From: Diprion similis
Taxonomy: Eukaryota > Arthropoda > Insecta > Hymenoptera > Diprionidae
Reading direction: 5' to 3'
NCBI RefSeq assembly: GCF_021155765.1
Contig: NC_060105.1
Span: 16,401,001-16,465,000, forward strand
DNA length: 64,000 bases
Notes under the pieces: generated by a model
Told to the model about the DNA's origin: nothing
What the model saw: only the letters and a program-made list of their open reading frames with translations
Databases searched by the model: none
Made by a program: the position numbers and the translations under genes
Part shown: in pieces, positions 2,223 to 38,680 of the stretch
Numbering within the stretch: the stretch's first letter is position 1
Layout of the letters: every line of letters begins with the position of its first letter

Positions 2223-4559
2223 TTAGTGAAGAGACTTCACTTGATTCTCAATTTGTTTGAGTTCAGTTCTTTTATCGTCTATTTCCTCCAAGATTTTTAT
2301 TTTTTTTGCTGAAAGTTCTTTTCTTTCCTGAATGGCCCTCTTCTTTGATTCATTTTTATTTTTCTGGATTTTATCCTCTGTCGCCCTTTGTAACAAGGCT
2401 TCCTTGTATCTAGCGTGAGCATTTTTTACAGCATGGATTAGTGGTGTAGTTGTTGAAACTTTGCGAATGCCACCAGCCGTGGAGACAGCATCATAAACGT
2501 GTCGCTGTGCTATAAGGGATTGCTCACGAAGATTCTCTACTAAACACTCCTTATTGACTGAGAATCCTCTTTCTAGGCTGGCATTTCCATGGGAAATAAT
2601 GAGCAACATTTTAATGAATTGCCTCAAGTTCTCGTTCTCCTTATTATCTCCCAGTATTTTAACCCAGAAATGATCGAGTCTTTCGTCAGTTCGAATATAA
2701 TTCTTCATTGCGTCTTTTACGCTGTCTCGCTCACAAAATACTTTAAACTCTCTTTCAACTTTATCTGCAGTATTTCCAGAGAGACGATTACGTTGCACAA
2801 GGATTTCCAAAGCAGATTTGAAAGGTTTCATGGCACCAGTGGAAGATGCAATTGTTGTAGGATTCAAACATGATAGCGCCATGGTGAAAGGGTACTTTAA
2901 CGGTGACCTCTCTACGATCTTCTCGGCGAAAAGTCGTAGACAGGTCATACAATCTTTCCGAAACCGAAGCACGTCGATATCTTTGATGTTTTTACATTGT
3001 CGAAGAGCATCCCGAGTAGCATACCCTAGGTCAAAATCTTGGGCTCGTTGCAAATTTTCCTTCTTCGTCAAGTCAATTTTTACGAGCGGAATGGTATTTA
3101 ATATTTCGCTTTTTACCAATCTCTCAATAATATTTCTCAGCATAAGAGTTAGGGAATCAGACAAGAACGGTGCCATTGGAGAATCGGTCTGATATTCCCG
3201 AAGAAATGGTTCAACATTTTCGGCGATTGACCGAAAGAAAGCGAGTTTTGCTGGTAAAAGCTTATCCTGCGCAAGTCTTTCAATGACTTCAAAACTCTTG
3301 CATTTCGGCGCACGTTTTTCGGCCCTAATCTTTTCCACATATACCTTCATGTGAGGCAAGATTGACTGTGCACGGGTGGCGGCTTTAGCATTCTCTAACC
3401 ACCTTATCGCACAGAATTTCAGCGGGAATTCAGTGGTATTAGTGATTCGAATGTAATCACCTCGTCGAGAAGGGACATTTTTGAAAAGGTTGTAAATGGC
3501 TCTCAAGAATTCAATAATCTCCCAACCCGTACCTCGCATGCCAGCCTTAAACGCACAACGTGTTGTGTGTATTCCACAGGAACCGATATCAAGTAGCTCT
3601 GGATCATCTTCCTCATTTTTGATGTCTTCTTTGAAAAGTCGCAGAAATTCAAAGTTGACGTTTGGGCCATCCATCGACAACTGTAAAATCTTCTTAAAGT
3701 TGAAACTTTATATTACTTCCTTAAATGCCTTCAACAAATCCTCAGATGTCGTATGTTCCAAAAACACAGACGTCAGATATCTTGTGCTTACTTCGTTCCT
3801 CGTTTTGTCCCAAAATCTCAAAATAACATCCATTTGTTGCTTTTGCGCAACCTTATTAAGACTCTCATCAAACCCGAACACGTAGTAATCACAAGATTTA
3901 GCAATATCATCCAGCTGAATTCTGAAGAAAGGACCGAGAACGTGCACAATTACATATGAAATTTTCGCTCTACTCAGTTCTAGTTGCTGTACTTCATCCA
4001 CCTCATTGAACATATATTTGAACAATGCCACTTTTTCTTGTGAATTACGTAGCGAGTCGTGATTCATTACTGTCCCCATACACCAGATAGCTTCTCTCTT
4101 TGTTGTTGCTTCTTTAATCAGATAGTTGTTCATAACTCGCTCCTGCAGTGTAGGAAAGACAGTATATGATCGCTTTTGTGTGCAGGATGCTGCAGTGCAA
4201 ACCGATTGTCCTGTAGATGAGGCGTAACTTTCTGGCTGATCAGTAGACTCCGCCGATTTGATAGTAGACGCAGATGCGCTGGAGACTTTAGGTTCAGGGT
4301 GTGGGAGATTTTGTTTAAAAAATACTGGGAGAGGTGTTGCGTTGGACGTTGTAGCAAGAAAAATTTCCTTGTGTTTTTTGGACATAGAATGGCTTACGAC
4401 TGCTTGTCTCCCCATGCTGTCTACGGCAAAATTTCTTCCGCACAGTTCACAACGTGTCTGATATGGATCCTTTTCTACCGGCTTCACCCACGGAAATTCA
4501 GTATTCCATGATTGCTGAAACTTCGTTATCCCTCTTTTTGGCATAACTGCAATATGCAA
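2223..4559 (-). pseudogene. hAT-like transposase with one in-frame stop
   Basis: One minus-strand frame of about 778 codons is interrupted by a single TAA at 3708-3710; both sides are in the same frame. The likely start is the second Met (about 4544), directly after an acceptor-like TTGCAG. Near the N terminus a zinc finger of BED type is visible (C37, C40, H57, H63 counting from the first Met). The C-terminal third contains NASLERGFSVNKE, the conserved hAT dimerisation segment, followed by a highly charged coiled-coil tail. In life it would cut and paste its own element via the terminal repeats at 1178 and 6562. The stop falls in the middle of the catalytic region, so only a truncated protein could be made. 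Otherwise the frame is intact, which implies fairly recent loss. Confidence 0.85.
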
Positions 4560-4773
4560 ATAAAACAGAAAAACGACCCATCAGGAGAAACTTTGAACCT
4601 ACAGCATCGATATATTTGAACGGTACGAAAATATTGGTTGTACGGCGCGGTTAAGCTAACTTTTCTTCACCTTCGGAATTGATATATCAGCATTTTTTCG
4701 ATGACAACCATGAATTTTCAGGTAACATAAAAAACTCATGACTTTCTGAATGTACGTCGACGCTTAGACGTAA

Positions 4774-5644
4774 GCATTCGGTATAATATGTGCGGAAATC
4801 GGGAACGTCAGAAGTTCAATTAGGTAAAATTCGAGAACTATTAATTGTATAAAAAGTTGCATATCAAAAAGTTTCAGTTTTGAGTAAAATTCAACGTCAG
4901 AATATGCAAAAAGTTATCGAGGCCGCGGACAGTCCGTAAAAACTCAAAGAATATCAGTTGTTGAGATTTCTCAAAAGTAGCATAATTTTTTTTGACCAAA
5001 ATTTCAGAGAATGTTCCTCTCTCACTGTTCAAAAACTTGTGTTAACTTCATTATGGGCCGGAACCTGTTTTCGAAGCTATGAATTTTTTTTCTAATTTAA
5101 AAAAAAAAAAAAAATTCGGTTTAAGTTTTTTCTCTCTTTCTCATCATCAGCCGGGATTCGGTTTTGAAGCTATGAATTTTTTCCAAATCTTTTTCAAAAA
5201 ATTGAAATTTGTTTTTGGAAATTTTTTTCCCCGGAAATTCGGAACACATGCGTAGCTTCAAAACCAAATTCAGGCCCCTGATGGAAAACGGAAAATAAGG
5301 AAATGTATTTTTTTCAAATTCGGAAAAAAATTCATAACTTCGAAACAAGATCCCGGCCCATGATGAAATTCACACAAGTTTTTGAACAGTAAGAGAGGAA
5401 CAGCCTCTGAAGTTTTGGTCGCAAAAAATTAATCCGATTTTGAGAATTCTCAAAAATTAATATTCTTAGAGTTATTACGGACTGTTAGCGGCATCGATAA
5501 CTTTTTGCATATTTTGACGTTGAAGTTCACTCAAATCTGAAAATTTTTCATATGCAACTTTTTTTTATACAATAAATAGTTTTTCAATTATACTTAATTG
5601 AACTTCGGACGCGTCCGAATTTCCGCACATATTATACCGAATGC
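4774..5644. repeat. Long hairpin (fold-back) element flanked by TAA
   Basis: About 400-base arms are near-perfect inverted copies: the left arm begins GCATTCGGTATAATATGTGC and the right arm ends with its reverse complement. TAA lies immediately outside both ends (4771-4773, 5645-5647), the target duplication expected of PIF/Harbinger-type MITEs. It lies inside hAT element 1 upstream of the transposase gene. The inner part is A/T-homopolymer rich. No coding capacity. Confidence 0.85.
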
Positions 5645-6694
5645 TAACATGAAATTTATCGTACACGCGTACAACGTAAAACAAGGTATTACTGTGACTA
5701 AGTTTTCAATTACCAAATCCGAGAATTTTTCGTGTTTAAGAATAAGGGTGGATTTTTTTTTCAAGAAAGTGACGATATTATGAAGTAAAAGTGTTTTATA
5801 TATATACTCAATTGCATGCACATGCCTATACTAATTCTGGTAGACATATGTCTACCATGATGTCTCTGATGTATCTGAGTGATAAGTGTAATAACAGCGA
5901 TATCATGTGACTTTGGTTATTAATTATCAAATCAAACGTAAAACTTTGAAAATATGTATCCGATATATGATGCCAAATTCGTGCTGGTCTCTCATCAACG
6001 AAGCTTACGACGTTCTGATCAACAACTTGAAATATAACATTATTGCAGTTGATTATCACTTACCTGAAATTGGCAGCACTCTTTAAAACTCACAACACAG
6101 CTTCGCAATACTCTTAATGTGTAGCTCTGAACGTGTATACGACCGTGGTACGTATAATACTGATTCCAAATGTGCGTCTGTCGCTACGCGCTGTGCATTG
6201 AGCGAGTTTATGCATGTTTTTACTCGCAGCCGAGTCTCAGGCGATCGTCTGGCATACAATGTATAAAATCAACAAAATCATGTTCCTTTCCCATCAAAAA
6301 TGTTTTCGAGCAAATCTCGCAGCTTTCATGATGACCTAGGCCAGCTACGTACATTTACTGTTGCTCAGATTGCAATGATATTCTGAAGAAATATTTATTT
6401 AAAAAAATTCGTTTTCAACGGATGAATGTAGAAACGGCAATTTCAGCGCGAATTCCCGGTTGCCAGTAAAAATTCCCGTATAATTCCCGTATTTTCAAGG
6501 GGGCTTTGAAATTCCCGTAGAATTCCCGATTTTCCAGGAATTCCCGGTTGCTAGACACCCTGGCTGAGACACGTAGTAAGATGTACTTCAGATTCTGGAA
6601 TAATGTGCTCACTCAGACTGAATATTTGAATTTATATCCCCATTCATACTAAATTTTCATAACCGTCGATTCTGTAAATATTAGCACTACTCAC

Positions 6695-7403
6695 CAGGTA
6701 TATTCGATGCTCATTCGACTTTCGAGAAGTTCTTCGAGGTTCGCAAATTCTTCCATTGTTTCAATTGGGAGCGTCGGAAAAATCTCTGGCTGCTGTACAG
6801 TGTCGACGTTAGCTGCTTGCTGCCTCGATATTATTTTCTTTAGCATAAGTTGATTTTGGTCTACACAAGATTTTATGTCTTCCAAATACTTTACAGCTCT
6901 ATCGTCGATGGGCCTCAGTGGATTTTGGGATGCAACAACTGTTGCAGCTTCAGCTACCGAATTCGAGGTTTGTTTTGCAAAGTTTGTGACCTTGATAGGT
7001 CGTATTGAGTTATCGACCTTGTCAAACTGTGCGCTGAAGGGCGAACTGTTTTATTTACAGAAACGATAACAGGTGATGCATTTGATATGTTGATATTCTG
7101 TCGTGGATTCGGAGGGGAATGGTGTATTGGTAGACAATTTTCATCAACTGATGAAGTATCGTCTGCAGTATCTGAAGACGTCTCACGTTGACGCTTTACC
7201 TTCTTCTTTTTGCTTTTCTTGGATTTCCTTGTATGTTTATGCTTCTTGGAAACATTTTCATGTACGACAGCTTCATCATTGGCCTCGCCATCTTCATCAT
7301 CGCTCTGCGACTCTCTTTCATAATAGCGCCCTGTGGATTTCTTACTGATGGTGTAAACTGTGCCATCCTCCTCGGATGTACCGTGTTCTATAATGTGCGT
7401 CAT
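6695..7403 (-). CDS. Upstream exon(s) of a DUF4806-type gene, probably frameshifted
   Basis: A minus-strand frame from 7403 (ATG) to 6954 encodes a hydrophilic protein with an acidic patch and a strongly basic KSKKSKKKKVKR stretch that looks like a nuclear localisation signal. A second frame, open from about 7050 to 6691, continues with VAEAATVV, a short coiled segment and LPIETMEEFANLEELLESR, which resembles the start of DUF4806. The frames overlap between 7050 and 6954, so one indel (or a small intron) is needed to join them. The second frame ends at a strong donor, G/GTGAGT, at 6694. The next exons of the same type are at 945-1101 and 593-774, on the far side of the hAT element at 1178-6562, so the transposon appears to sit in an intron of this gene. 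Function unknown. Confidence 0.5.
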
Positions 7404-24188: not shown

Positions 24189-24632
24189 CTAAATTGCAAT
24201 GACCAATTGATTTTTGAAATCATAAGGTACTTTATTTATCGCGTTATTGACGATTTTTGTACTAATTATATATTTACTGTCAGTCATTGTCAATTCGTGT
24301 ATATAAACGCGTCGTCCTGTTCTCACCATGGAATTGTGTGAGTCCATCCCACAATGATAAACTATTCTGTCTATCTCAATTTTACATTGAATGATATCTA
24401 TGTGGTGAAATTCTGCTAGTTGGAGTAGTTGGACATGAATATTTTCAGAAACAGGTTCCCTATCCGGTATATCGCATTTTCCAATACTGACCGTATCGAT
24501 AATCGATGTGTTCCTTGAAGTTCCTCCACAATGATATCCCACCAGTGCCCAAGTTACGGTGGGCATCAATAAAGCGATCATAATAATGACTTTTCTCATT
24601 GTTCCTTTTCTAGAACAGAGTGCTCCACTCAT
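24189..24632 (-). pseudogene. Truncated envelope-like glycoprotein fragment
   Basis: The frame has a signal peptide (KVIIMIALLMPTVTWA, about residues 14-29) followed by a cysteine-containing ectodomain start (GYHCGG, IGKCDIP, VQLLQL, QCKIEI, YHCGMDSH). This cysteine pattern resembles glycoproteins found in insect genomes that are related to those of chuvirus-like negative-strand viruses and of env-bearing LTR elements. That resemblance is from memory. Only about 147 residues remain, so the fusion and membrane-anchor parts are missing and no functional envelope could be made. It follows integrase of Gypsy B on the same strand, where an env gene would lie. Confidence 0.5.
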
Positions 24633-24694
24633 TAATTAATAAAGAAGATATTTGCATAATTTAATAATCTGAAACTATTGAATACAATTGCATT

Positions 24695-25123
24695 TTATCT
24701 TTTTGGTTCACTGTCTGGTTTGATTGGAATTTTAATCAGAGTTTGTTCATTTTCTAATATATGATGTCTTTTATACACTTTCCAATCTTTGACAATTTTC
24801 GTGCAAATGAAATCATTTTCACAATGTATCATAATGAAAGAATTTTCTACATTTCCAATTGTTTCGAAAATGGAATGTATACTTGAGATTTCCACTTCGT
24901 AGTAGAGTAACATAAAATAAGTCCCCGGAATTAATACTTTGTCTTGAATTAGATCGATAATTAGTGATCTTTCGGGTTCAATAATAGGAGCGCCGGTTTC
25001 CACGATCCTCATTTGTGTGTTATTATCAACCCTTATGATCAAGCCGTCTACTGTCGGGTTGAGTATAAATAAAATTTCGAAGGGTGGGTGTACAGGCGGT
25101 ATCTTAATTCTAAAACAATGCAT
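24695..25123 (-). CDS. Unrecognised ORF upstream of the glycoprotein fragment
   Basis: A 142-residue minus-strand frame with protein-like composition, rich in Ile and charged residues, with two cysteines (CENDFIC). Eleven bases into it an acceptor-like TTGTTTTAG (ending 25110) could join it to an upstream leader exon. There is no signal peptide and no family I recognise. It sits 62 bases upstream of the glycoprotein-like frame. It may be the 3' end of a retroelement ORF or part of an accessory gene. Confidence 0.35.
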   Translation of the reverse strand: MHCFRIKIPPVHPPFEILFILNPTVDGLIIRVDNNTQMRIVETGAPIIEPERSLIIDLIQDKVLIPGTYFMLLYYEVEISSIHSIFETIGNVENSFIMIHCENDFICTKIVKDWKVYKRHHILENEQTLIKIPIKPDSEPKR

Positions 25124-26214: not shown

Positions 26215-26939
26215 TTATGCCTTCAACATTTTTAGTCTATTCATATGAACTATCTTAATTTCATTTCCGACTTTAATTTTGACATTCTGATTTTCTAATA
26301 ATTCCTGAATTTCATACGGTCCTGGATATTGATCAGCAGATTTTCCTTTTTTTGGGTTCCTTTAGAAGAAAAACTAGGTCTTCTTTCACCAAGTTTAACG
26401 AATTTAATTTATTATCATAATAATATTTAGATTTTTCTTTAGAATGTATCAGATTTTCTTTAGCCAGATTTTGAATATTACTAATTTTGGTGAAAAGTTC
26501 AACTAGGTATTCTTCGTAAGTTCGATCATTTAATTCCTCAATTATTTCATGTTCAGATGGCAATCTTGCTAATTTGCCAAAGTTCATACGGTGTATATTT
26601 CGTTCCTTCATGGACACTTGTATTATAAGAAAACATTGCCAAATCTAACCATTTATCCCAATTATTATTTTTCGTAACATATTGCTTTAGATATTCAGCT
26701 AGAACATGGTGTGATCTTTCTATAGATCCATTTGATTGGGGATGGAAAGCTGTTGTTTTACATTGTTTGATTTTAAATTTCTTTGCTACTGTTTTCAATG
26801 AACTCGTAAGATTAGCACCTTGATCAGTAAGGATATGCTTAGGAGCTCCAAATTTACAAATAAAATTATTGATCAGGGCTTCTGCCACATCAATTGAGGT
26901 TGTTGAATTTAAGGGGACCAGTACAGCTTGAAATTTCAA
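26215..26939 (-). pseudogene. Gypsy B integrase, core and C-terminal part
   Basis: The frame 26939-26553 continues the catalytic core with LTDQGANL (second Asp) and AFHPQSNGSIERSHHVL (catalytic Glu). A frameshift leads to 26617-26333 with a charged C-terminal domain (KSKYYYDNKL), and a further shift near 26340 leads to YPGPYEIQELL and a stop at 26215-26217. The N-terminal part of the same enzyme is at 29360-29735, beyond the DNA transposon. At the junction only the TTAA target must be counted once for the frame to close. Confidence 0.9.
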
Positions 26940-27601
26940 AACAATCGATTTTTTTTTTTTGCCTTAAACGCTACTTTAGGGTCATGTCTATCTCTAAAAA
27001 TCATCGTTGACGAATTCGATGGAATGACAGCGTAATCATCGAAAACCATTTTTTCATAATCGAATTTTGTCTTGCCTTAACGCTACGTCAGAGTTATATC
27101 CATTTGTGGAAAAAACACCTGTTCGTAGAATCCGAATACCGCGCCTATGTGAACAGCCTCAGCAATCTGGCGCAAGTAGCGCTATTGCTTTGTTTTCATC
27201 ACGCTCACATGTCTTACGAACTGACGTTTGGCGGGCTTCAGAGGCCTGTTGACTGCTGTTGACTATCCGGCGATCTAAAGACGTTCTGAATTTCAAAACG
27301 CAAACAGTACTTTTCAGTGCTAAAAAATCGGCGATTTATTGTGCTAAATATTCACTGTGTCACTGTCATTTTCTTGTGTAAACATCGAGTGATAATGTTT
27401 CAGAATATTCGCAGAATTAAGAAAAATACCTAACCCGAAAGTAAGTACATAAATCGTACTAGTGATACACGAAATAAGCTTCTGCTGACGTGTGTGTGCG
27501 GCGGAAGTTTTTTTGCTTTTTGTTCGCAGATCTTGTATATAAAAAAACTGGTGGACAAAAAATTAAAATATAAAAAAACTGGTTGAAGAAAAAGCGGAAG
27601 T

Positions 27602-28780
27602 ATGAAACGGAAAGAGCGGAGCTACGGCGTAGGCGTAAAAGGCTCAGTTGGCCGTTCAAAGAAGAGGGCAAAGATATTTCATCGACCTGAGCCAAACAAC
27701 GCAGAAGTTGGGTCCACCCCGAAAGCCCCTAATATTGCAACAGCCTCCGATAAGAAAATAACTGGGGCTTATAAAGCTGATAATTCTGCCGGCTATCGAT
27801 TATTCCACATCGAAACCTTGTTCCGGACTCTAAGAGAGAATCTGTGCTGCAAAGAATGTGGCGGGTCGATAGTTATGACCGAGGTGAAGTTGGAAGGCCT
27901 GGGAGGCACGTATGGCATCGCATGCGAGAACTGTGTTCAAATGAAAACTTTTAAGAGTAGCCCAACGATTGACAATACCCGCAATGTGTTTAAAATAAAT
28001 AGACGTGCCGTATTAGCAATGCGTTGTATCGGTCAAGGTTTGGAGAGTTTGACAACATTTTGTGGCGTAATGGACCTTCCATCAGCTGTTAAACGCCCAA
28101 CGTACAATGCGGTTGTCAAGCGTATGGTGGAAGCTACATCCAAAGTGGCCGATGCAGTTTTCCATCAAGCTGTTGAAGAGGAAGTTCAGGCTTTAGCGAC
28201 ACCAGATACTCGAAACATCACGGTACAGTGTGATGGTACATGGCAGAAGCGAGGGTACAAATCACTGAATGGTGTTTGTACGGTAATTGGCAGTGCCATG
28301 GGAAAGGTATTTCATTTCTCTGTCTTTCGTGTTCTGTCTCTTGCTCAAATAGAAATTGGCTGTTCCAGTTGTCCCGTAGCATTCTTCAACTTTAACTTTT
28401 TAGTTATTACTGTCGATTTTACAGGTCTTTTTTCTGAGCGTTAGTTGAGTTTCCATAATTATTTCAGGTAGTGGACCTCGAAGTCTTGTCTTCTTACTGC
28501 AACGCATGTGTTCAGTGGAAGGGAAAACAAAGTGGAGCAGCATGGGAGTCCTGGTATGATAAACACAAGCCAAATTGCCAAGCTAACCATACTGGCTCTT
28601 CCGGAACCATGGAAGTCAACGGTATGGTCAAGATATTCCAGCGGTCTGAAGACAAGCACAGCGGATAGTTCTCACGAAGCTTGAATTGCTATGAGAAGAC
28701 TACGACTTGCTGCCAACGAAGATGCTGTGGCCGGAGAAGGACCATCCTATGCTGCAGGAGCATTTTGAAAATGGTATGTT
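27602..28780 (+). pseudogene. Mutator/Kolobok-type transposase, internally deleted
   Basis: Exon 1 (27602-28306) starts with a basic N terminus (KRKERSYGVGVKGSVGRSKK), then has a Cys4-like pair (CCKEC and CENC) and a segment QCDGTWQKRGYKSLNGV, which contains the probable first catalytic Asp. A 161-base intron (GT 28307, AG 28467) leads in phase to exon 2 (VVDLEVLSSYCNACVQWKG, ending KIFQRSEDKHSG at 28668). After the stop, a frame near 28690-28770 (MRRLRLAANEDAV, then EGPSYAAGAF) looks like the true C terminus. The region between, with the later catalytic residues (the GDGDSS block and beyond, present in the relative at 55622), is missing. The gene is thus a deletion derivative that would need another copy to move. 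Confidence 0.8.
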
Positions 28781-29359: not shown

Positions 29360-29735
29360 CTAATCAAGCTGTACTGGTCCCCTTAATGGTACTGCTACGG
29401 AATATTTTGTTAATTGATCTTGAATTGTTAAAATATATTCATTATTTGAAGGAGTGATAGGTAAAGGACCTACAATGTCCATAGACATTTTGTCAAAGCT
29501 TGAACCTGGCGTGTCAGTTAACACCATAGGTTGCTTAGTTTTAACTCTTGTTAATTTTTTAAGTTGACATTCCATACATTCTGTAACGTACTGCTGGACT
29601 TGCAGTTTCATATTTGGCCAAAAGAAATTCTGTCTGATTCTATTATATGTCTTTGTAACTCCCTTATGTCCTCCTATTGGTAATGCATGATATTCTCGAA
29701 TTATCTCAGTACGTTCTGTAAGTGATGGGACTCTA
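29360..29735 (-). pseudogene. Gypsy B integrase, N-terminal part
   Basis: Reading from about 29735, the frame has the H-H-C-C zinc domain (histidines in YHALPIGGHKG, cysteines in CMECQLKKL) and the beginning of the catalytic core with MSMDIVGPLPI (first Asp). It stops where the TTAA-flanked element entered (29383-29386). A single-base frameshift separates it from the preceding macro-like segment. Confidence 0.9.
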
Positions 29736-30284
29736 ATTTAAGTTTTTGCAAATTGTTATTCTACATTCATTATCATTAAAAATGGATTCCAACAAAATTC
29801 GAATTTCCTTCCAATTTATTTCGTCTATTTTTCCAGTTTTTGCAATTGATAAACTATTCTTTAATTCCCGAACAACATCCAATAGAGATTTCAACGATTC
29901 TATTAAAATATCACGATCCAAAGGTGTATTTACCGATTCTTTGATTGGTAAAGCGATACATTTCTTGCTTCCCATTGAAGTTACTCGTGCTCTTCTCAAC
30001 ATAGCTTCTGTGATTTTTGGTAATTTATTTATATCTTGCAAATCTTTAGATTCCTCATCTATCGGTATTCCTCGAGTAGTTGTAAAAATGACACAATTAT
30101 CACTTCGCATGGAAAGTCTATCCCTCGTTTCGAAAATTTTTGGATTGGTTTGTAATCCTTCCTGATCCGATTCGCGATGTGCTAGTTCTATGTCATCATT
30201 TGTGGATAATTCTGTATCCTTGTCAGATTCATCATCAGAATATTCAATAGGGCTGTTCATGATTTCCTCCCCTTTCATTTCCAA
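29733..30284 (-). pseudogene. Gypsy B Pol: second, degenerate macro-like segment
   Basis: A 183-residue frame between the macrodomain and integrase. After an acidic linker (residues 1-50), residues about 53-181 follow the same pattern as the macrodomain just upstream: ALPIKES parallels LITKKES; ESLKSLLDVVREL parallels QSLISLKSLCENL; SIAKTGKIDEINWKEI parallels IAMPKIGCGLDRLSWDKV; ESIFNDNECRITIC parallels DTIFTDPFDVLIC. The GCGLD motif is replaced by TGKID, so the catalytic loop has lost its glycines. I infer a duplicated macro fold that has lost enzymatic activity. A frameshift near 30260 separates it from the preceding frame. The comparison is by eye between two segments of this window. Confidence 0.65.
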
Positions 30285-31659
30285 TGGATCTGTGAACCTT
30301 TGTGTTTTGTATGTTATTATTTGTGTTAATAGTTTCTAGAATTTCATCGTTTATTGCATTGTTAGATTGTTCTTGGTTTTCATTGTAGAAAAGATCAGAA
30401 TCGTTTAAAATATCTTCTGCATTGATATGTGTTTTAGATTTTGATTTGCGCGTTTTAAAATTGTCTGTGTATCTGTCTGGTGCTTTTATGGTCTGTCTGT
30501 CTCGAAGTTTACGACCCATATTTTCTATATTCTGAATATTTGGGTTTTCGGAATTTCTATCCTTTCCTACGCTTGGGCCTACTAATACGTCAACGTTTCG
30601 TAACGGACTCCCTTCGCAGTGTGAGTTACTACCTGAAGGTCCTTGACCTTGTAGCCCATATGTTTCAGATGTATCAGGTTTCCCGTTGATACATATAAGA
30701 ACATCGAAAGGATCTGTGAAAATGGTGTCGATCTTTTGTTTTACCTTATCCCATGATAATCTGTCTAAACCACATCCTATCTTGGGCATTGCAATTTTAT
30801 AACAATTTAGATTTTCGCAAAGACTTTTCAGTGATATTAGACTTTGTTCTAGTGATTTTAATTTTGGTTTTCCGTTACTTTCCTTCTTCGTTATTAGGTA
30901 AAATATATATCTATTGACATATTTTAGAAAAGCTACTTCACCAACAGACTTCTTTTGAGATTTCAAGCAACTGATATTTCCGAAACGTTTTTTAAATTTA
31001 AGAGCTATACCTGCACTCATACTGAAATCTTCTGCTACGCAATGAACTAATGAATAGTTTTGGTCTTCTGTGAATAAGTCACCTGATATAATTTTAATAT
31101 TTTCTGTGGACATTCCTATCACATCCTGGATTTGTTGTTTAATTGCCAATATTTGTGTTTCGTTCAACACTGGGTTTCTTGACAATGCGTCAGCATTGGC
31201 GTTTATCTTTCCAGGTTTGTATTCCCAGCTATATTCATATTCCGCAAGTTTTAATCTCCATCGTACGAGTCTCGACATTGGATCTTTGACTGAGTGCAAC
31301 CAAATTAAAGGTCTATGATCTGTGACCAATTTAAATTTCATCCCATATAAATATGGTCTAAAATAATTAACTGCATAAACTATAGCCAATAGTTCTTTCT
31401 CAATTGTTGAATAATTTCTCTCTGCCTGGTTTAACAATCTAGATGTATACGCTATTGGTAAGTCTTTTCCTACTGTACCTTGACTTAATACTCCTCCTAT
31501 CGCGAATCCTGATGCATCTGTTGTTACGATAAATGGTTTGGTAAAATCAGGATATTGCAGTATTGGATTTTCACACAGTTTATCTCGTAATTGATTGAAG
31601 GCTTTTTCTTGTGCGTCTTTCCAGAGAAATTTAACATCTTTTTTCAAAAGTTCCGTCAA
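30244..31659 (-). pseudogene. Gypsy B Pol: RNase H followed by OARD1/TARG1-like macrodomain
   Basis: Residues 1-165 of this 471-residue frame are the end of RT and the RNase H domain (VTTDASGFAIGG, TDHRPLIW, NADALSRNP). Residues about 188-325 (30685-31098) form a macrodomain: GDLFTEDQNYSLVHCVAEDF, SMSAGIALKFKKRFG, GEVAFLK, YIFYLITKKESNGKP and PKIGCGLDRLSW. The GDLF start, the AGIAL loop, the Lys-containing TKK segment and the GCGLD loop are those of OARD1/TARG1-type proteins, which remove ADP-ribose from acidic residues. The residues matching the known catalytic Lys and Asp appear to be present (K258 or K259, and D299). The domain is in the same unbroken frame as RNase H. The remaining 140 residues are low-complexity and charged. 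What a retroelement would use it for is unknown. Confidence 0.85.
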
Positions 31660-33226
31660 AGGTTTTGCTATCTTGGAGAAATTTACTACAAAGCGTCGAT
31701 CGTAACCGATTAGACCTAAAAATTGTTTTATATTTTTCGCATTCTTGGGTTATGAGAATTCTTCAACTGCTACGATTTTCTTTGGATCGGGTTTTACACC
31801 ATCCTCACTGATTATGTAGCCTAAATAGATTACTTCTTTCTTCAGAAACTTGCATTTGTCTGGTTGAAGTTTTAAATTTGCATTTCTTTTAGTTTCGCCC
31901 TTAATAAATTGAATTTATCTTCGTGTTCTTTGAGTGAACTTGAATATATTATACTATGTCATCGAGGTAAACAAATAGTTCTATACCCTGTAAACCCCGT
32001 AAAACGTGATCCAACAACCTTTGAAACGTTGCTGGTGCGTTCTTTAAACCAAACGGCATTCTTTGAAACTGATGGTGGCCATATGGTGTTGAAAATGCTG
32101 TTTTAGCTGCATCTTTTTCCCTCATTTTAATTTGATGAAAACCTGAGGCTAAATCGAATATTGAAAAGTATTTTGCACTACCTAATTGATCTAAAATTTC
32201 CGTTATATTTGGTAACGGGTGGCCGTCTTCTACTGTCTTTTCATTTAAATTTCGATAATCTATAACCATTCTCCAGCGTTCATTACCCTTGGAATCGTCC
32301 TTCTTTGGTACGATCCATAGTGGAGAATTATATGGAGATAATGACGGTTTAATAATGACATTATTTAATAAATCCTTTACCTGCCTATTTATTTCTTCTT
32401 TATGAACTGGCGGGAATCTATATTGTTTAATATTTATTGGTTGTTCGTCGATTGTATTTATTTCATGTTCTATAACATTTGTGGCTCCTAATAACTCACC
32501 GGGAATATGAAACCTGTCTTGGTTTTCATATATTAAACGATGCATACTTTCTTCTTCTTCATTTAAATGTTCGAGTCTTAACAGCTCTAACATTTCGTTA
32601 TAACGTGTTATCGCGTCGATTTTATAAGTTTTTCGAATTTTTTGAAAATTTTCTATGCAATGATCATTTTGGGTGCTCTGATCATTTTGGGTGCTCTGAT
32701 CATTTTGGGTGCTCTTATTATTTTGAATGCGATGATTATTTTGGATGCTCTGATTATTTTGATTGCAATGATCATTTTGGATGCTCTTAATATTTCTTTT
32801 TGAAATTAATTCTGGATTTGAAAACAAACTTTGTTGACCTATTCTATCGTCATTTCCCTGCCCCAAGGAAAGATTTGACTCAGAAATTCCATTTCTCACT
32901 GGAGGATTTGCTAAATCATTCACGCAATTTTCCTGCAAGTCAAGCCTTAAGGTTGAATCGTGCAGCGGTATCGCGCCCTCGCTAGGTAGCAAACTTATGG
33001 TCGGTACAAGCAATTCTATCTCCTCGTCCGTAGAATTAATTATTCGGATACGCGCTTTTCCGTTATCATTTTTAGCTAACGCTTCTCTTAATAATACTCC
33101 TTCTTTTACAGTCAACCTTGGTACGTAACCTTCGTTTACGTCTTTATTTTTTATTTTTATATAAAATGGAGCATTTGAACGTGCGGGAATTGTAACTACC
33201 TCACGCGTATTGAAATAAAATACCAA
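31660..33226 (-). pseudogene. Gypsy B reverse transcriptase
   Basis: The frame 33226-31949 starts with a protease-RT linker containing tandem repeats and goes on to the RT: WIVPKKDDSKG, WRMVIDYRNLNEKT, FSIFDLASGFHQIKM, FGLKNAPATFQRLLD and FVYLDDIV with the catalytic Asp pair near 31955. A frameshift right after YLDDIV leads to the thumb region (31660-31948), which has further stops. RNase H follows. The enzyme would copy element RNA into DNA, but as it stands it is truncated after the active site. Confidence 0.9.
32660..32795 (-). repeat. 18-bp minisatellite inside the RT linker
   Basis: Seven or so units of an 18-base repeat (plus strand TCATTTTGGGTGCTCTGA, the first three nearly identical, later ones diverged) encode a repeated STQNDQ/SIQNNH hexapeptide in frame. 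The array lies in the linker upstream of the RT domain. Confidence 0.85.
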
Positions 33227-33240
33227 GTCGTTTATTTCGA

Positions 33241-33525
33241 CTAATTTTTGAGCATAATTAATTGTTGCTTTTTGAGATTGAAAAAATTTGTTCCCAGAAT
33301 GCCGGCCTGAGGAATTGGGAGATTGTCATTCACAACATGAAAGTAAACGGGCATTCCAGATATTTCAATTTTGACACATCCTAAGGTGTGAACGTAACTG
33401 TCTGGTATTCCTCTCAGTTGCAACACATTATTCATATCAATATTATTTAATGATGAAAGATTTCCTACTTTTAAAAGATTCGGCTTCGATCCCGTATCTA
33501 TCATTACGTCTATTTCATCTATCAA
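33241..33525 (-). pseudogene. Gypsy B aspartic protease
   Basis: A 94-residue frame with the retropepsin active-site triad in VMIDTGSKPNLLK (residues 8-20) and the second conserved hydrophobic-Gly motif in AGILGTNFF. It lies between the zinc knuckles and RT. A stop separates it from the RT frame. It would process the Gag-Pol polyprotein. Confidence 0.85.
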
Positions 33526-33699
33526 GTCTTTGGATTTTATTTTGATTGTGGGTACTTGACCATCGATTTTTAGTTTTATTGTTGCAACGCGGACTCCTGT
33601 ACTTCCTGAGTAATCACGGCAGTTTGGGTATGGTTGACCGCCCGGGATCCGCTTTGTGTTACCGAGGGTCCCTAACCGTTTCCCGAATTCGGATTACTC

Positions 33700-34203
33700 G
33701 AATTTTCTCAAACATTTCTGCGATACTGTAATTTACGACACACATCTATTGTGTAGCCTGTCCTTTTACAATATCTACAAGATGTTCGATTTTCGTTTGT
33801 GGAATTGCCTGCTTGCTTGTTGCTTCGACTACTTTGAGGTTGATTTTGCGTGAAATTTCCACGCCTACTGTTATTTCCGTCATTACTATTGCTTCTGTTA
33901 CTTCCGCAATCACTTCGCGGTTGGTTTTCTCGTCTGAAGCGACAGTTTTCCGTGGCATGGTTGGTTCGCTGACATATTCAGCATTTCATAAATGATTGCG
34001 GATTAGCCTGTTGCAATTGCTGTCTGAAATTTTGTACTACTTTTCCCCTTGCTTTCTCCATCTCGAGTCGTCCACCTAACTCGATGGCTGTATCAAATGC
34101 TTCGGTAAGGGAGGTTGTAACATTGCGTTTTTGACGGATGTTATGGACCGCCACCTCCACCCCAAACTCTATTATCAAACGGTAGCAACGAGAAGTCATG
34201 GCG
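33700..34203 (-). pseudogene. Gypsy B gag, C-terminal part with two knuckles
   Basis: From 34203 the frame continues the capsid region (YRLIIEFGVEVAVHNIRQKR, FDTAIELGGRLEMEKARGK). A second frame then carries two CCHC-type knuckles around 33965-33925 and 33790-33745. In the first a stop codon replaces a residue between the first two cysteines. In the second the histidine position is Tyr. Between them is a Ser/Asn/Arg-rich linker. The upstream part of gag is at 36283-37823, across the insertion at 34209-36277. Confidence 0.8.
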
Positions 34204-36277: not shown

Positions 36278-36282
36278 TACAA

Positions 36283-37823
36283 GGTATATCCTTTCAAATG
36301 TAAGCCTATGCTGAATTCTGATGGCAGTCCTTCTATAAAGCCTAATATCTTGAGTGTTTCTGACTCTATGGCTCTTTCAGTTTCTTCATTCACGTGACCG
36401 TTTGTGCTTCGTTCACATTCTAAAATTGCTGTCCTCAAGTCTTTGATTCGACCGATGTATTCTATAATGTGCTCATCAGATCTTTTGAATGCTGTAGCTA
36501 ATTCTCCGCGGTAAAAATTCACTGATCGAGAAGGTGCGAAAACTGTAGATAATTTATCTAGGAACAATTCGAGGGTGTCAAAAGTTTGTTCTTCTACTAC
36601 GATATACGCTTCATCTTTTAGCTTTGTCTTGATATTTCTAACTAGCTGTTTTTCTAATCTAGGTGCAATCACAGCTTTTGCTCGCTTGCAAGCTCGGATA
36701 AATTGAGAAAACGGTAAATTATCCCTGTCGTAAGATGGTATTCGTGCTACAATTGAACCCATCGGAATTGACTGTTCTGTCGTATCGATTTCTACTTCAT
36801 TTTGCGGCCGTTCAGTTCTACCTACATTGATTGATTTTGATATTTCTTTCAAGTCTGCTAATTCGTCTTTTATACTTGCTTCAGAATTTGGAGCGTTTTC
36901 TACTGATGTTACTGAATTTATTTCTCGTTTCGCGATTTCGCGTTTCTCTTCTTTCTCTAGATCTGCAATTAATTTTTTCATTTCCTCTTCTTTCCTTTGG
37001 TATTCTTTCTTACGCTCAGCTAGTAATAACATATGTGATTGATTTTCTCTTGAGTTTCCTGTTTTTGAGCTCTTCAATTTGTTTTTGCATAATCGCTAGT
37101 TCTTTCAAGAATTCTTTTTCACATTCTTTTAACAATATCCGAGGATCTTCTATTGTTTCTAAATCTGCAATAATATTGCTAGGATTTGGGTTAATATCTA
37201 ATTCTGATTGCAAGTGAGGTTCTATACTTTTACCGGTGATTTGAGTTGACTCATTTGATTCCTGGATTTTTGTATGAATCTGAGAATGTTCTACCTCCAT
37301 TTCCTCTACTGTTGTATTAGTACTCGTTACTGATTCTCCAGTTTGTTCATACATATTTGTTTCTACACTAACTTCAGATTCTACTGTTTTCTGTGATGAT
37401 TTTTGATTTTTTCGAGCTTCTTCCAATTGTTTTTTCATTTCTAATTGCTTGACTAGGAATTCCCTGTTCTAATTTCTCTCGTTTCTCACTTTCTGTTAAC
37501 TGTTTGGCTAAAAATTCCTGTTCTAATTTTTCTCGCAGTTCACTTTCTCGTTTCTTGATTTCTTCTTCCGGTTTATTCGATAATTCCGCTGACCGTGACT
37601 CTACTACTTCTTCAGCTTTTCGCACCCTATTTTGCAAGGCATTAATTTGATCAGCGTATTCAGCTTCTGTTTCTTTGGATTGTTTTGATGTATCAGCTAT
37701 TTTTTCACGTTCTACTTGTAGTAACCGTTTTTCTTTATTCACTTGTTCGGTATATGCTAATAATTCTGCCTCTGTAAGAGGAATAACCTTTCCGGTGTCC
37801 TTTACACTTCGCGTTAAAGGCAT
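36283..37823 (-). pseudogene. Gypsy B gag, N-terminal and capsid part
   Basis: Starts with ATG at 37823 (MPLTRSVKDTGK). The first 350 residues, in three frames (37823-37374, 37438-37016, 37077-36277), are a long Glu/Lys-rich coiled coil. The capsid-like domain follows (MGSIVARIPSYDRDNLPFS, then FYRGELATAFKRSDEHI). Two frameshifts (near 37450 and 37060) break it, and the 34209-36277 insertion ends it. The overall design, a long coiled coil followed by capsid, is the same as the gag at 62723, so the two elements are probably related. Confidence 0.85.
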
Positions 37824-37843
37824 GATTTTAAAATAAATAGGCT

Positions 37844-38089
37844 ATGCTGTCACCAATGAGTTTTCACACTCATGAAAAAATAAAAATTGAAGTCGTAATC
37901 AATGGATTACTAATAGAAAAAGAAAAAAAAATCCGGTTTTTGGCTAAATTCGATCCACACCGCTGTGACCACTGTTATGGGCTGGATTGGCTGATGACCA
38001 AACCATTCCAAAAATATAACGCTTGGTTCGAACTAGTTCTCCCGGATGTGAATTATTTGAATTTTGATATCGTTTTCCCTCTTGGTTGA
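37844..38089 (+). other. Antisense ORF in the leader of Gypsy B
   Basis: An 81-residue plus-strand frame whose second half looks protein-like (CDHCYGLDWLMTKPFQKYNA, FELVLPDVNYLNFDIVF). It lies opposite the untranslated leader of Gypsy B. No family recognised. It may be a chance frame. Confidence 0.2.
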
Positions 38090-38117
38090 ACCGACTTTGA
38101 TAATAAAATGGTCACTT

Positions 38118-38680
38118 ACCTTTGGTTGTTGACTGTTGATTCGGGCTGTGTGGGCGACTCTGCGTGTTCGGCCGGTGGTGGGATTGGTATAAAGTTACTG
38201 ATTGTTTCGCTTATATTATGCGTTGAAGGTAATTAATTGTTTAACTCGCGATGTAAGTTGAACACACGGATACTTGTTTATTAAAGTTAGGTTTATGAAA
38301 AAAATGCTTATAATAATTTGATTATAAAAGGTGAAAGGTTTAAATGTAAAAGACACGGAATTCCCTTTTAGCACTTTGGTTTGTTGAATTAAATAAAAAA
38401 GACCTTTTAGGATTTCCAACAGATTCTCTGATCTGATTGACTTGTCTAAGACTGAGAGAATGAGAATTGCTTCTTGTTGACGACTGTTAATAACTGAGAA
38501 ATGAGCGAATGAGAATGAGACCTGAGAATGAAAATTGAGAAATGAGAACGAAAAACGTGAGGCGACCCTTTTTAAAGGTTTACGTACTAATGTTACCTAC
38601 TTCCTGATTGGTTCCCAGCATCTTTGAGAGAGCTACCCAATAAGGAAGTCTTGATAATATTTTGAGTTTTCCATCCGCCC
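38118..38680 (-). promoter_or_regulatory. Probable 5' LTR and leader of Gypsy B with splice donor
   Basis: On the minus strand, upstream of gag, a TTTAAA-type TATA box lies near 38573 and an AATAAA signal near 38275, consistent with U3-R-U5. A consensus donor AAAG/GTAAGT (38118-38121) lies in the leader and could join to a downstream acceptor (for example 25110) to make a spliced mRNA. LTR limits cannot be fixed because no second copy is visible and no clear primer site was found. The right side meets the hairpin at 38683. Confidence 0.45.

What the first reader, a model, noticed from the sequence alone, without database searches (positions are those of the whole stretch)
30685..31098. OARD1/TARG1-like macrodomain inside a Gypsy Pol polyprotein
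Seen in sequence: in an uninterrupted frame directly after RNase H, a segment of about 138 residues carries GDLFTEDQ, AGIALKFKKRFG, LITKKESNGKP and IGCGLDRLSW. Known: this set of blocks, including the Lys and the Asp of GCGLD, is that of OARD1/TARG1-type macrodomains that hydrolyse ADP-ribose from acidic residues. Inference: the retroelement captured a host or viral macrodomain and kept it between RNase H and integrase, perhaps to counter host ADP-ribosylation (PARP) responses or to act on element proteins. I do not know of this arrangement being described for Gypsy elements.
Basis: partly seen in the sequence, partly recalled or inferred. Interest (0 to 1): 0.88.

Follow-up and report, generated by a model that had tools for sequence, protein, structure and literature searches.

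The report
ADP-ribose eraser inside Gypsy polyprotein
A lineage of insect Gypsy retroelements carries, between its RNase H and integrase, a domain that closely resembles the human ADP-ribose-removing enzyme TARG1, kept with its active-site residues in several families, which suggests that these elements must undo ADP-ribose marks to copy or insert themselves.

Summary
Confirmed, on the minus strand. Window 30685-31098 encodes a TARG1/OARD1-type macrodomain (PDB E 3e-35; model pLDDT 92, TM 0.96 to TARG1) in one frame with RNase H of a broken Gypsy copy. The same 269-Mb genome holds Gypsy families A (about 85% identical macro), B (37%) and C (34%) with open frames up to 1,724, 1,841 and 1,802 codons, order RT-RNase H-macro-linker-second macro-like domain-integrase, and LTR pairs 99.1-99.95% identical in three copies tested. 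Of 101 RNase H matches at 54% identity or more, 90 have one or both domains downstream; of 49 at 50% or less, none. The catalytic Lys is kept in 30 of 30 loci examined, the Asp in 27 of 28 that cover it; window versus family A, dN/dS is 0.17. Related elements occur in two named sawflies. Separate macrodomain ORFs are known in fish ERVs; for Gypsy Pol my searches found no description. Most likely it is a hydrolase that strips host ADP-ribose from the element's DNA or integration complex; activity is untested.

The parts
30685..31098 (-). TARG1/OARD1-type macrodomain with catalytic Lys71 and Asp112 (segment numbering)
   Evidence: Pfam PF01661, PDB OARD1 E 3.3e-35, AlphaFold2 pLDDT 92.2, Foldseek TARG1 TM 0.96
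29739..30140 (-). second, decayed macro-like domain before the integrase zinc-binding domain
30141..30684 (-). linker between the two macrodomains, frame broken in this copy
   Evidence: ORF ends at 30244; overlapping ORF 29733-30335 in another frame
31237..31548 (-). RNase H domain (RT_RNaseH)
   Evidence: PF17917 E 2.9e-39, residues 68-171 of the 501-aa frame
31952..32311 (-). reverse transcriptase domain, partial
   Evidence: PF00078 E 4e-25
32648..33578 (-). start of Pol (protease region by position)
   Evidence: 92.6% to a family A copy; no Pfam protease hit in that piece of family A
29555..29719 (-). integrase H2C2 zinc-binding domain
   Evidence: PF17921 E 1.1e-21
26742..26924 (-). integrase core, separated from the zinc finger by an insertion
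   Evidence: PF00665 E 3.1e-5, below the curated cut-off; 95.5% to family A
36282..37841 (-). Gag region by position (two matching pieces, 37841-37498 and 37181-36282)
   Evidence: 89-90% to the first ORF of a family A copy; Pfam names no gag there, but the family B counterpart matches Retrotrans_gag E 3e-5
33579..34115 (-). end of the Gag region after an insertion
   Evidence: 91.6% to family A
37973..38460 (-). remnant of an LTR, with a further scrap at 38597-38678
   Evidence: 87.5% to the 1,248-bp family A LTR
24294..24710 (-). remnant of the region behind Pol
   Evidence: 80% to family A post-pol stretch
27587..28444 (+). Mutator-like transposase inserted in the integrase of the window copy
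   Evidence: PF20700 E 1.9e-26

Best explanation
A lineage of Gypsy elements in sawfly-like Hymenoptera acquired an OARD1/TARG1-type macrodomain between RNase H and integrase; a second copy next to it decayed and now sits just before the integrase zinc finger. Shown: identity, predicted fold, place, retention in several recently mobile families, conserved catalytic residues. Inferred: the first domain is an active ADP-ribosyl hydrolase delivered with Pol. It removes ADP-ribose that host PARPs put on the nucleoprotein complex (on cDNA ends or single-stranded cDNA, and on Asp/Glu of RT, integrase or nearby chromatin proteins), so that second-strand synthesis, integration and gap repair can proceed. 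The decayed domain most likely serves as a docking or ADP-ribose-reading module for integrase.
For: TARG1 is the closest solved sequence and structure, ahead of DarG macrodomains. The Lys is K in 30 of 30 loci and the Asp is D in 27 of 28 loci that cover it (L001-L030), and both persist between families only 34-37% identical, which pure ligand binding would not require of the catalytic Lys. dN/dS 0.17 (30 synonymous, 24 non-synonymous changes; binomial P 3.5e-8). Place between RNase H and integrase, the DNA-handling parts of Pol. TARG1 reverses thymidine-linked ADP-ribose on DNA and depends on K84 (PMC8501950 passages); PARP1 modifies telomeric DNA at unligated lagging-strand fragments and TARG1 removes it (PMC11102865 abstract). 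A similar macrodomain is built into a copepod DNA ligase 3, another DNA-end enzyme.
Against: No activity, expression or particle data. Families E and G keep the macro-like domain without an active macrodomain at this place, so the activity is not required there by every family. The macro tree does not unite families A and B/C (one clade: AU p 0.068), so one origin is not shown. The window copy itself is dead. Protein targets would serve equally well as DNA targets.
Confidence: 0.5

Rival explanations
1. Immune antagonist: as in alphavirus and coronavirus macrodomains (recalled), it removes ADP-ribose from host or element proteins marked by antiviral or silencing ADP-ribosyltransferases, acting in trans rather than on the integration complex.
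For: One copy each of families A and G has Monjiviricetes-type fusion glycoprotein reading frames behind Pol, so the lineage has virus-like gene content; SIRT6 silences L1 by ADP-ribosylating KAP1 in mammals (PMC4695847 passages).
Against: The domain is inside Pol, made in low amounts compared with Gag in most LTR elements (general knowledge), a poor place for a trans-acting factor; insect antiviral ADP-ribosylation was not examined here.
Confidence: 0.22
2. One reading: both macrodomains bind ADP-ribose on chromatin and steer integration, as the chromodomain is thought to do in chromoviruses; hydrolysis is incidental.
For: The macro-like domain is the more widely kept of the two (seen in families A, B, C, E, G), sits directly before integrase, and has lost several active-site features; in P0020 a macrodomain follows an integrase chromodomain.
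Against: The first domain keeps the catalytic Lys and Asp in divergent families.
Confidence: 0.15
3. Passenger: a captured segment without function that persists because it does not harm the element.
For: The stretch between RNase H and integrase varies greatly in this lineage (321-796 aa in nine rows).
Against: Purifying selection, catalytic residues kept at 34-37% identity, presence in Athalia, Neodiprion and an unnamed assembly.
Confidence: 0.03

Closest known systems
Human TARG1/OARD1 (C6orf130)
   Same: Best sequence and structure match; catalytic Lys and Asp with the same spacing
   Different: A host enzyme, not part of a retroelement Pol
Macro-domain ORFs in ray-finned fish endogenous retroviruses (Basta et al. 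2009, cited in PMC4977317)
   Same: A retroelement carrying a macrodomain gene
   Different: Described there as additional open reading frames in Epsilon-like sequences (passages of the review read; the original paper not read); here it is a domain within Gypsy Pol between RNase H and integrase, paired with a decayed copy
Chromoviruses (Gypsy with a chromodomain at the C-terminus of Pol)
   Same: Gypsy Pol with an added domain near integrase (PMC12440569 passages)
   Different: Other domain, other place
Jingchuvirales glycoprotein captures in arthropod LTR elements (PMC10084718)
   Same: Env-like reading frames of PF24664 type behind Pol in a family A and a family G copy; that PF24664 covers the Jingchuvirales glycoprotein is recalled
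   Different: That paper reports no clear evidence of capture by Gypsy and has no occurrence of 'macro' in its main text (passages)
Alphavirus nsP3 macrodomains
   Same: Macro fold in a viral polyprotein
   Different: Far weaker match: 11-17% identity in the alphavirus rows; coronavirus macrodomains are not in the 50 rows shown

Membership tests
OARD1/TARG1-type macrodomain | best match among solved macrodomains | tested here: met
   phmmer E 3.3e-35 against 2e-8 for the next kind, listed as RNase III inhibitor (5m3i, DarG); Foldseek ranks 1-8 are TARG1
OARD1/TARG1-type macrodomain | catalytic Lys (K84) and Asp of GCGLD | tested here: met
   aligned, spacing 41 in both; K84 role: PMC8501950 passages; that the LITK Lys is K84 and that the Asp is D125 is recalled and fits the spacing
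OARD1/TARG1-type macrodomain | ADP-ribose hydrolysis | not testable with these tools
   needs an assay
Gypsy LTR retroelement | LTRs with TG..CA ends and short target duplication | tested here: met
   family A copy: 1,248-bp LTRs 99.2%, TGT..ACA, CTAT on both sides; family C copy: 442-bp LTRs 99.1%, TGT..ACA, CAGA on both sides
Gypsy LTR retroelement | Pol order protease-RT-RNase H-integrase | tested here: met
   RT-RNase H-integrase in L004 and L030; RVP above cut-off in family B, below it in C, no Pfam protease hit in the family A piece
Gypsy LTR retroelement | place in a tree with named Gypsy clades | not tested
   no named reference set was used
Env-bearing, errantivirus-like element | intact env gene | tested here: inconclusive
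   PF24664 in two frames in an A copy, 102-172 and 458-624 of 653, so not intact there; N-terminal part only within the stretch read for G
Chromovirus | chromodomain after integrase | not tested
   the end of integrase of families A-C was not scanned
Fish ERV with separate macro ORF | macrodomain in its own reading frame | tested here: not met
   one frame with RNase H and integrase in L004 and L030

The most novel reading that the evidence does not exclude
Insects defend themselves against reverse transcription by ADP-ribosylating retroelement cDNA (single-stranded bases or ends), and this Gypsy lineage carries a built-in DNA ADP-ribose eraser, a eukaryotic counterpart of the DarT/DarG conflict; the decayed second macrodomain is an ADP-ribose reader joined to integrase.
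Probability: 0.12. Interest if true: 0.93.

Novelty: new variant of a known kind. Interest (0 to 1): 0.75.

Why it matters
An enzyme domain kept inside Pol by several mobile families marks a step in the retroelement cycle at which ADP-ribose may stand in the way. It makes a question testable: whether ADP-ribosylation of cDNA, integration complexes or chromatin restrains retroelements in insects. It also adds macrodomains to the accessory Pol domains, with signs of captures in other retroelement-like proteins at other places.

Full report
What is there. Frame 30244-31749 (501 aa) runs from the end of RT through RNase H (PF17917, E 2.9e-39) into a macrodomain (PF01661, E 3.4e-7, above the curated cut-off). 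By sequence the nearest solved protein is human OARD1/TARG1 (E 3.3e-35 over residues 3-133), then 5m3i (E 2e-8), a DarG macrodomain. A model built on eight related sequences has mean pLDDT 92.2 and matches TARG1 bound to ADP-ribose with TM 0.96, rmsd 1.0, 43% identity; ranks 1-8 are TARG1 and 9-11 DarG.

The window copy. By comparison with pieces of a family A copy the window element runs on the minus strand from an LTR remnant (38460-37973) through a Gag region (37841-36282, then 34115-33579 after an insertion), the start of Pol (33578-32648), RT to the integrase zinc finger (32599-29383) and, after an insertion that includes a Mutator-like transposase (27587-28444), the rest of integrase (26912-26215) and a scrap of the region behind Pol (24710-24294). 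No second LTR was matched in the window. Its Pol lies in several frames: it is dead. From 32599 to 29383 it is 92.2-92.9% identical to the 12 family A loci compared, of which L014 and L017 are one copy and L011 matches in two pieces. Identity drops to 80-84% in the second half of the macrodomain and the linker, and silent divergence there rises too (dS 0.99 in the last 68 codons of the macrodomain against 0.17 in the first 70), so this stretch probably came from a diverged subfamily by recombination; no donor was found.

Not an accident of one copy. A search of the host's own genome with the window macrodomain gave 106 matches (150 of 189 candidates scored; some are host exons, overlapping pieces or macro-like domains). 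They include family A (about 85%, frames to 1,724 codons), B (37%, 1,841 codons) and C (34%, to 1,802 codons). Frames read in part and scanned by Pfam show RT, RNase H, macro, linker, macro-like, integrase for A and C, and RT to macro-like for B, whose integrase follows in the same frame in L056. One copy each of A, B and C has LTR identities of 99.2% (1,248 bp), 99.95% (1,818 bp, one end not reached) and 99.1% (442 bp), with TGT..ACA ends and CTAT and CAGA on both sides in the A and C copies. Ten A loci (L002-L011) are 98.4-100% identical to one another over 3.4 kb. These are recent insertions.

Control against relatives. RNase H of family A found 150 matches, the most that were scored of 495 candidates. 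With distances to the macro and macro-like matches: of the first 99 in the list, 67 have both domains downstream, 18 the macro-like only, 3 the macro only and 11 neither; of the other 51, 49 have neither, one has both and one the macro-like, these two being truncated family C-like pieces with 56 and 62% identity. By identity, 101 matches at 54% or more: 68 both, 19 macro-like only, 3 macro only, 11 neither; 49 at 50% or less: none. Of the 11, three belong to family E, whose macro-like domain I saw on reading (L031, L045, L046); one more lies near an E-type piece (L037); the remaining seven were not read. The RNase H tree of 17 rows splits the 11 rows of this lineage from 6 rows without macro-type domains at 97/97. 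The stretch between RNase H and integrase is 321-796 aa in nine rows of the lineage and 63-107 aa in the six others. Family G (L044, open frame of 1,896 codons) has only the macro-like domain there. A family E copy (L031) has the unusual order RT-RNase H-macro-like-integrase-macro-like-aspartic protease-start of an active macro in one frame of 1,386 codons.

Selection. Window against L004 over the macrodomain: 30 synonymous and 24 non-synonymous changes, dS 0.461, dN 0.077, ratio 0.168; RNase H 0.113; macro-like 0.187. Against the share of silent sites (0.21) the macro counts have P 3.5e-8. Other between-family pairs are near or beyond saturation in dS and were not relied on. Close pairs are uninformative: three family C pairs give 0.28 to 1.13, the L035-L036 pair 0.36, the latter from decayed copies. 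The Lys is K in 30 of 30 loci L001-L030 and the Asp D in 27; in two it is not covered, in one (L015, a duplicated domain) it is R. These 30, the best matches, include the window itself, overlapping loci and a host exon; the other 76 matches were not examined for this.

Elsewhere. Protein searches gave Athalia rosae LOC125501328 (P0003, 59-63%, RNase H end-macro-macro-like-integrase), an unnamed assembly's 1,709-aa Pol (P0018, 60%), and Neodiprion virginianus LOC124301349 (P0030, 56% to family C, RT-RNase H-macro, integrase not in the record). Both named species are Tenthredinoidea; the unnamed host is probably a sawfly too (inference; three macro exons of its host gene are 65-78% identical to their best matches in an Athalia protein). 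OARD1-type domains also sit at other places in retroelement-like proteins: after an integrase chromodomain and before a glycoprotein-like part (P0020), before an aspartic protease (P0008, P0011). The macro tree groups A-type rows (98/96) and B/C rows (95/90), but neither firmly with a host donor nor with each other; one clade is not rejected (p 0.068).

How it probably works. Shown: a predicted TARG1-like fold with its catalytic pair, kept in mobile families within Pol. Known: TARG1 takes ADP-ribose off Asp/Glu and off DNA, the latter needing K84 (PMC8501950 passages; PMC11102865 abstract and introduction), and PARP1 marks single-stranded DNA at unligated fragments of telomeres (same abstract). 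Inferred: made with RT and integrase, the domain clears ADP-ribose from cDNA or from the integration complex. Whether DNA or protein is the target is not decided by any result here.

Novelty. Fish ERVs with macro-domain ORFs are on record (PMC4977317 passages). Searches gave no description of a macrodomain in Gypsy Pol. I file it as a new variant of a known kind: a Gypsy element with a captured accessory domain.

Noticed in passing
L031 (G000:C14:3854000-3861500), 3087-7244 minus: One open frame of 1,386 codons with RT-RNase H-macro-like-integrase-second macro-like-aspartic protease-start of an active macrodomain; a protease behind integrase is unusual.
   Followed up: partly
L060 1209-2133; L044 3929-4501: Env-like frames behind Pol in a family A and a family G copy match the Monjiviricetes fusion glycoprotein (PF24664, best E 1.7e-55 and 6e-49); PMC10084718 found no clear capture by Gypsy.
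   Followed up: partly
P0033, P0031, P0032, P0034: DNA ligase 3 of the copepod Lepeophtheirus salmonis and unnamed ligases carry an OARD1-like macrodomain, in P0033 between ligase and BRCT domains; there GCGLD reads GCRLD.
   Followed up: no
P0026, P0027: Cloeon dipterum proteins with DEAD helicase and Tudor domains (P0026 also CS) carry an OARD1-like macrodomain; the layout recalls TDRD12 of the piRNA pathway (recalled).
   Followed up: no
L033 (G000:C2:13507000-13515000) and P0001: Host gene with alternating macro and macro-like exons, matched by Athalia LOC105684241; similar pairs in a spittlebug protein and unnamed proteins.
   Followed up: partly
P0020: Integrase-chromodomain-macrodomain followed by a weak rhabdovirus-glycoprotein match (E 0.0019, below cut-off): a macrodomain at another place in another Gypsy-like element.
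   Followed up: partly
P0009, P0014: Macrodomain with a GDSL-hydrolase-like part, in P0009 behind a PHD-like finger (both matches below Pfam's cut-offs); recalls LINE ORF1 layouts (recalled, not tested; P0014 judged by eye).
   Followed up: no
P0028: Alphavirus-like replicase with an OARD1-type macrodomain, 44% identical to family A.
   Followed up: no
window 30420-30900, minus: Second half of the macrodomain and the linker of the window copy are far more diverged from family A than the flanks, silent sites included: mosaic of two subfamilies, donor not found.
   Followed up: partly
window 32624-32795: 18-base tandem repeat in Pol before RT, encoding a repeated six-residue unit; family A matches it at several overlapping places.
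   Followed up: no
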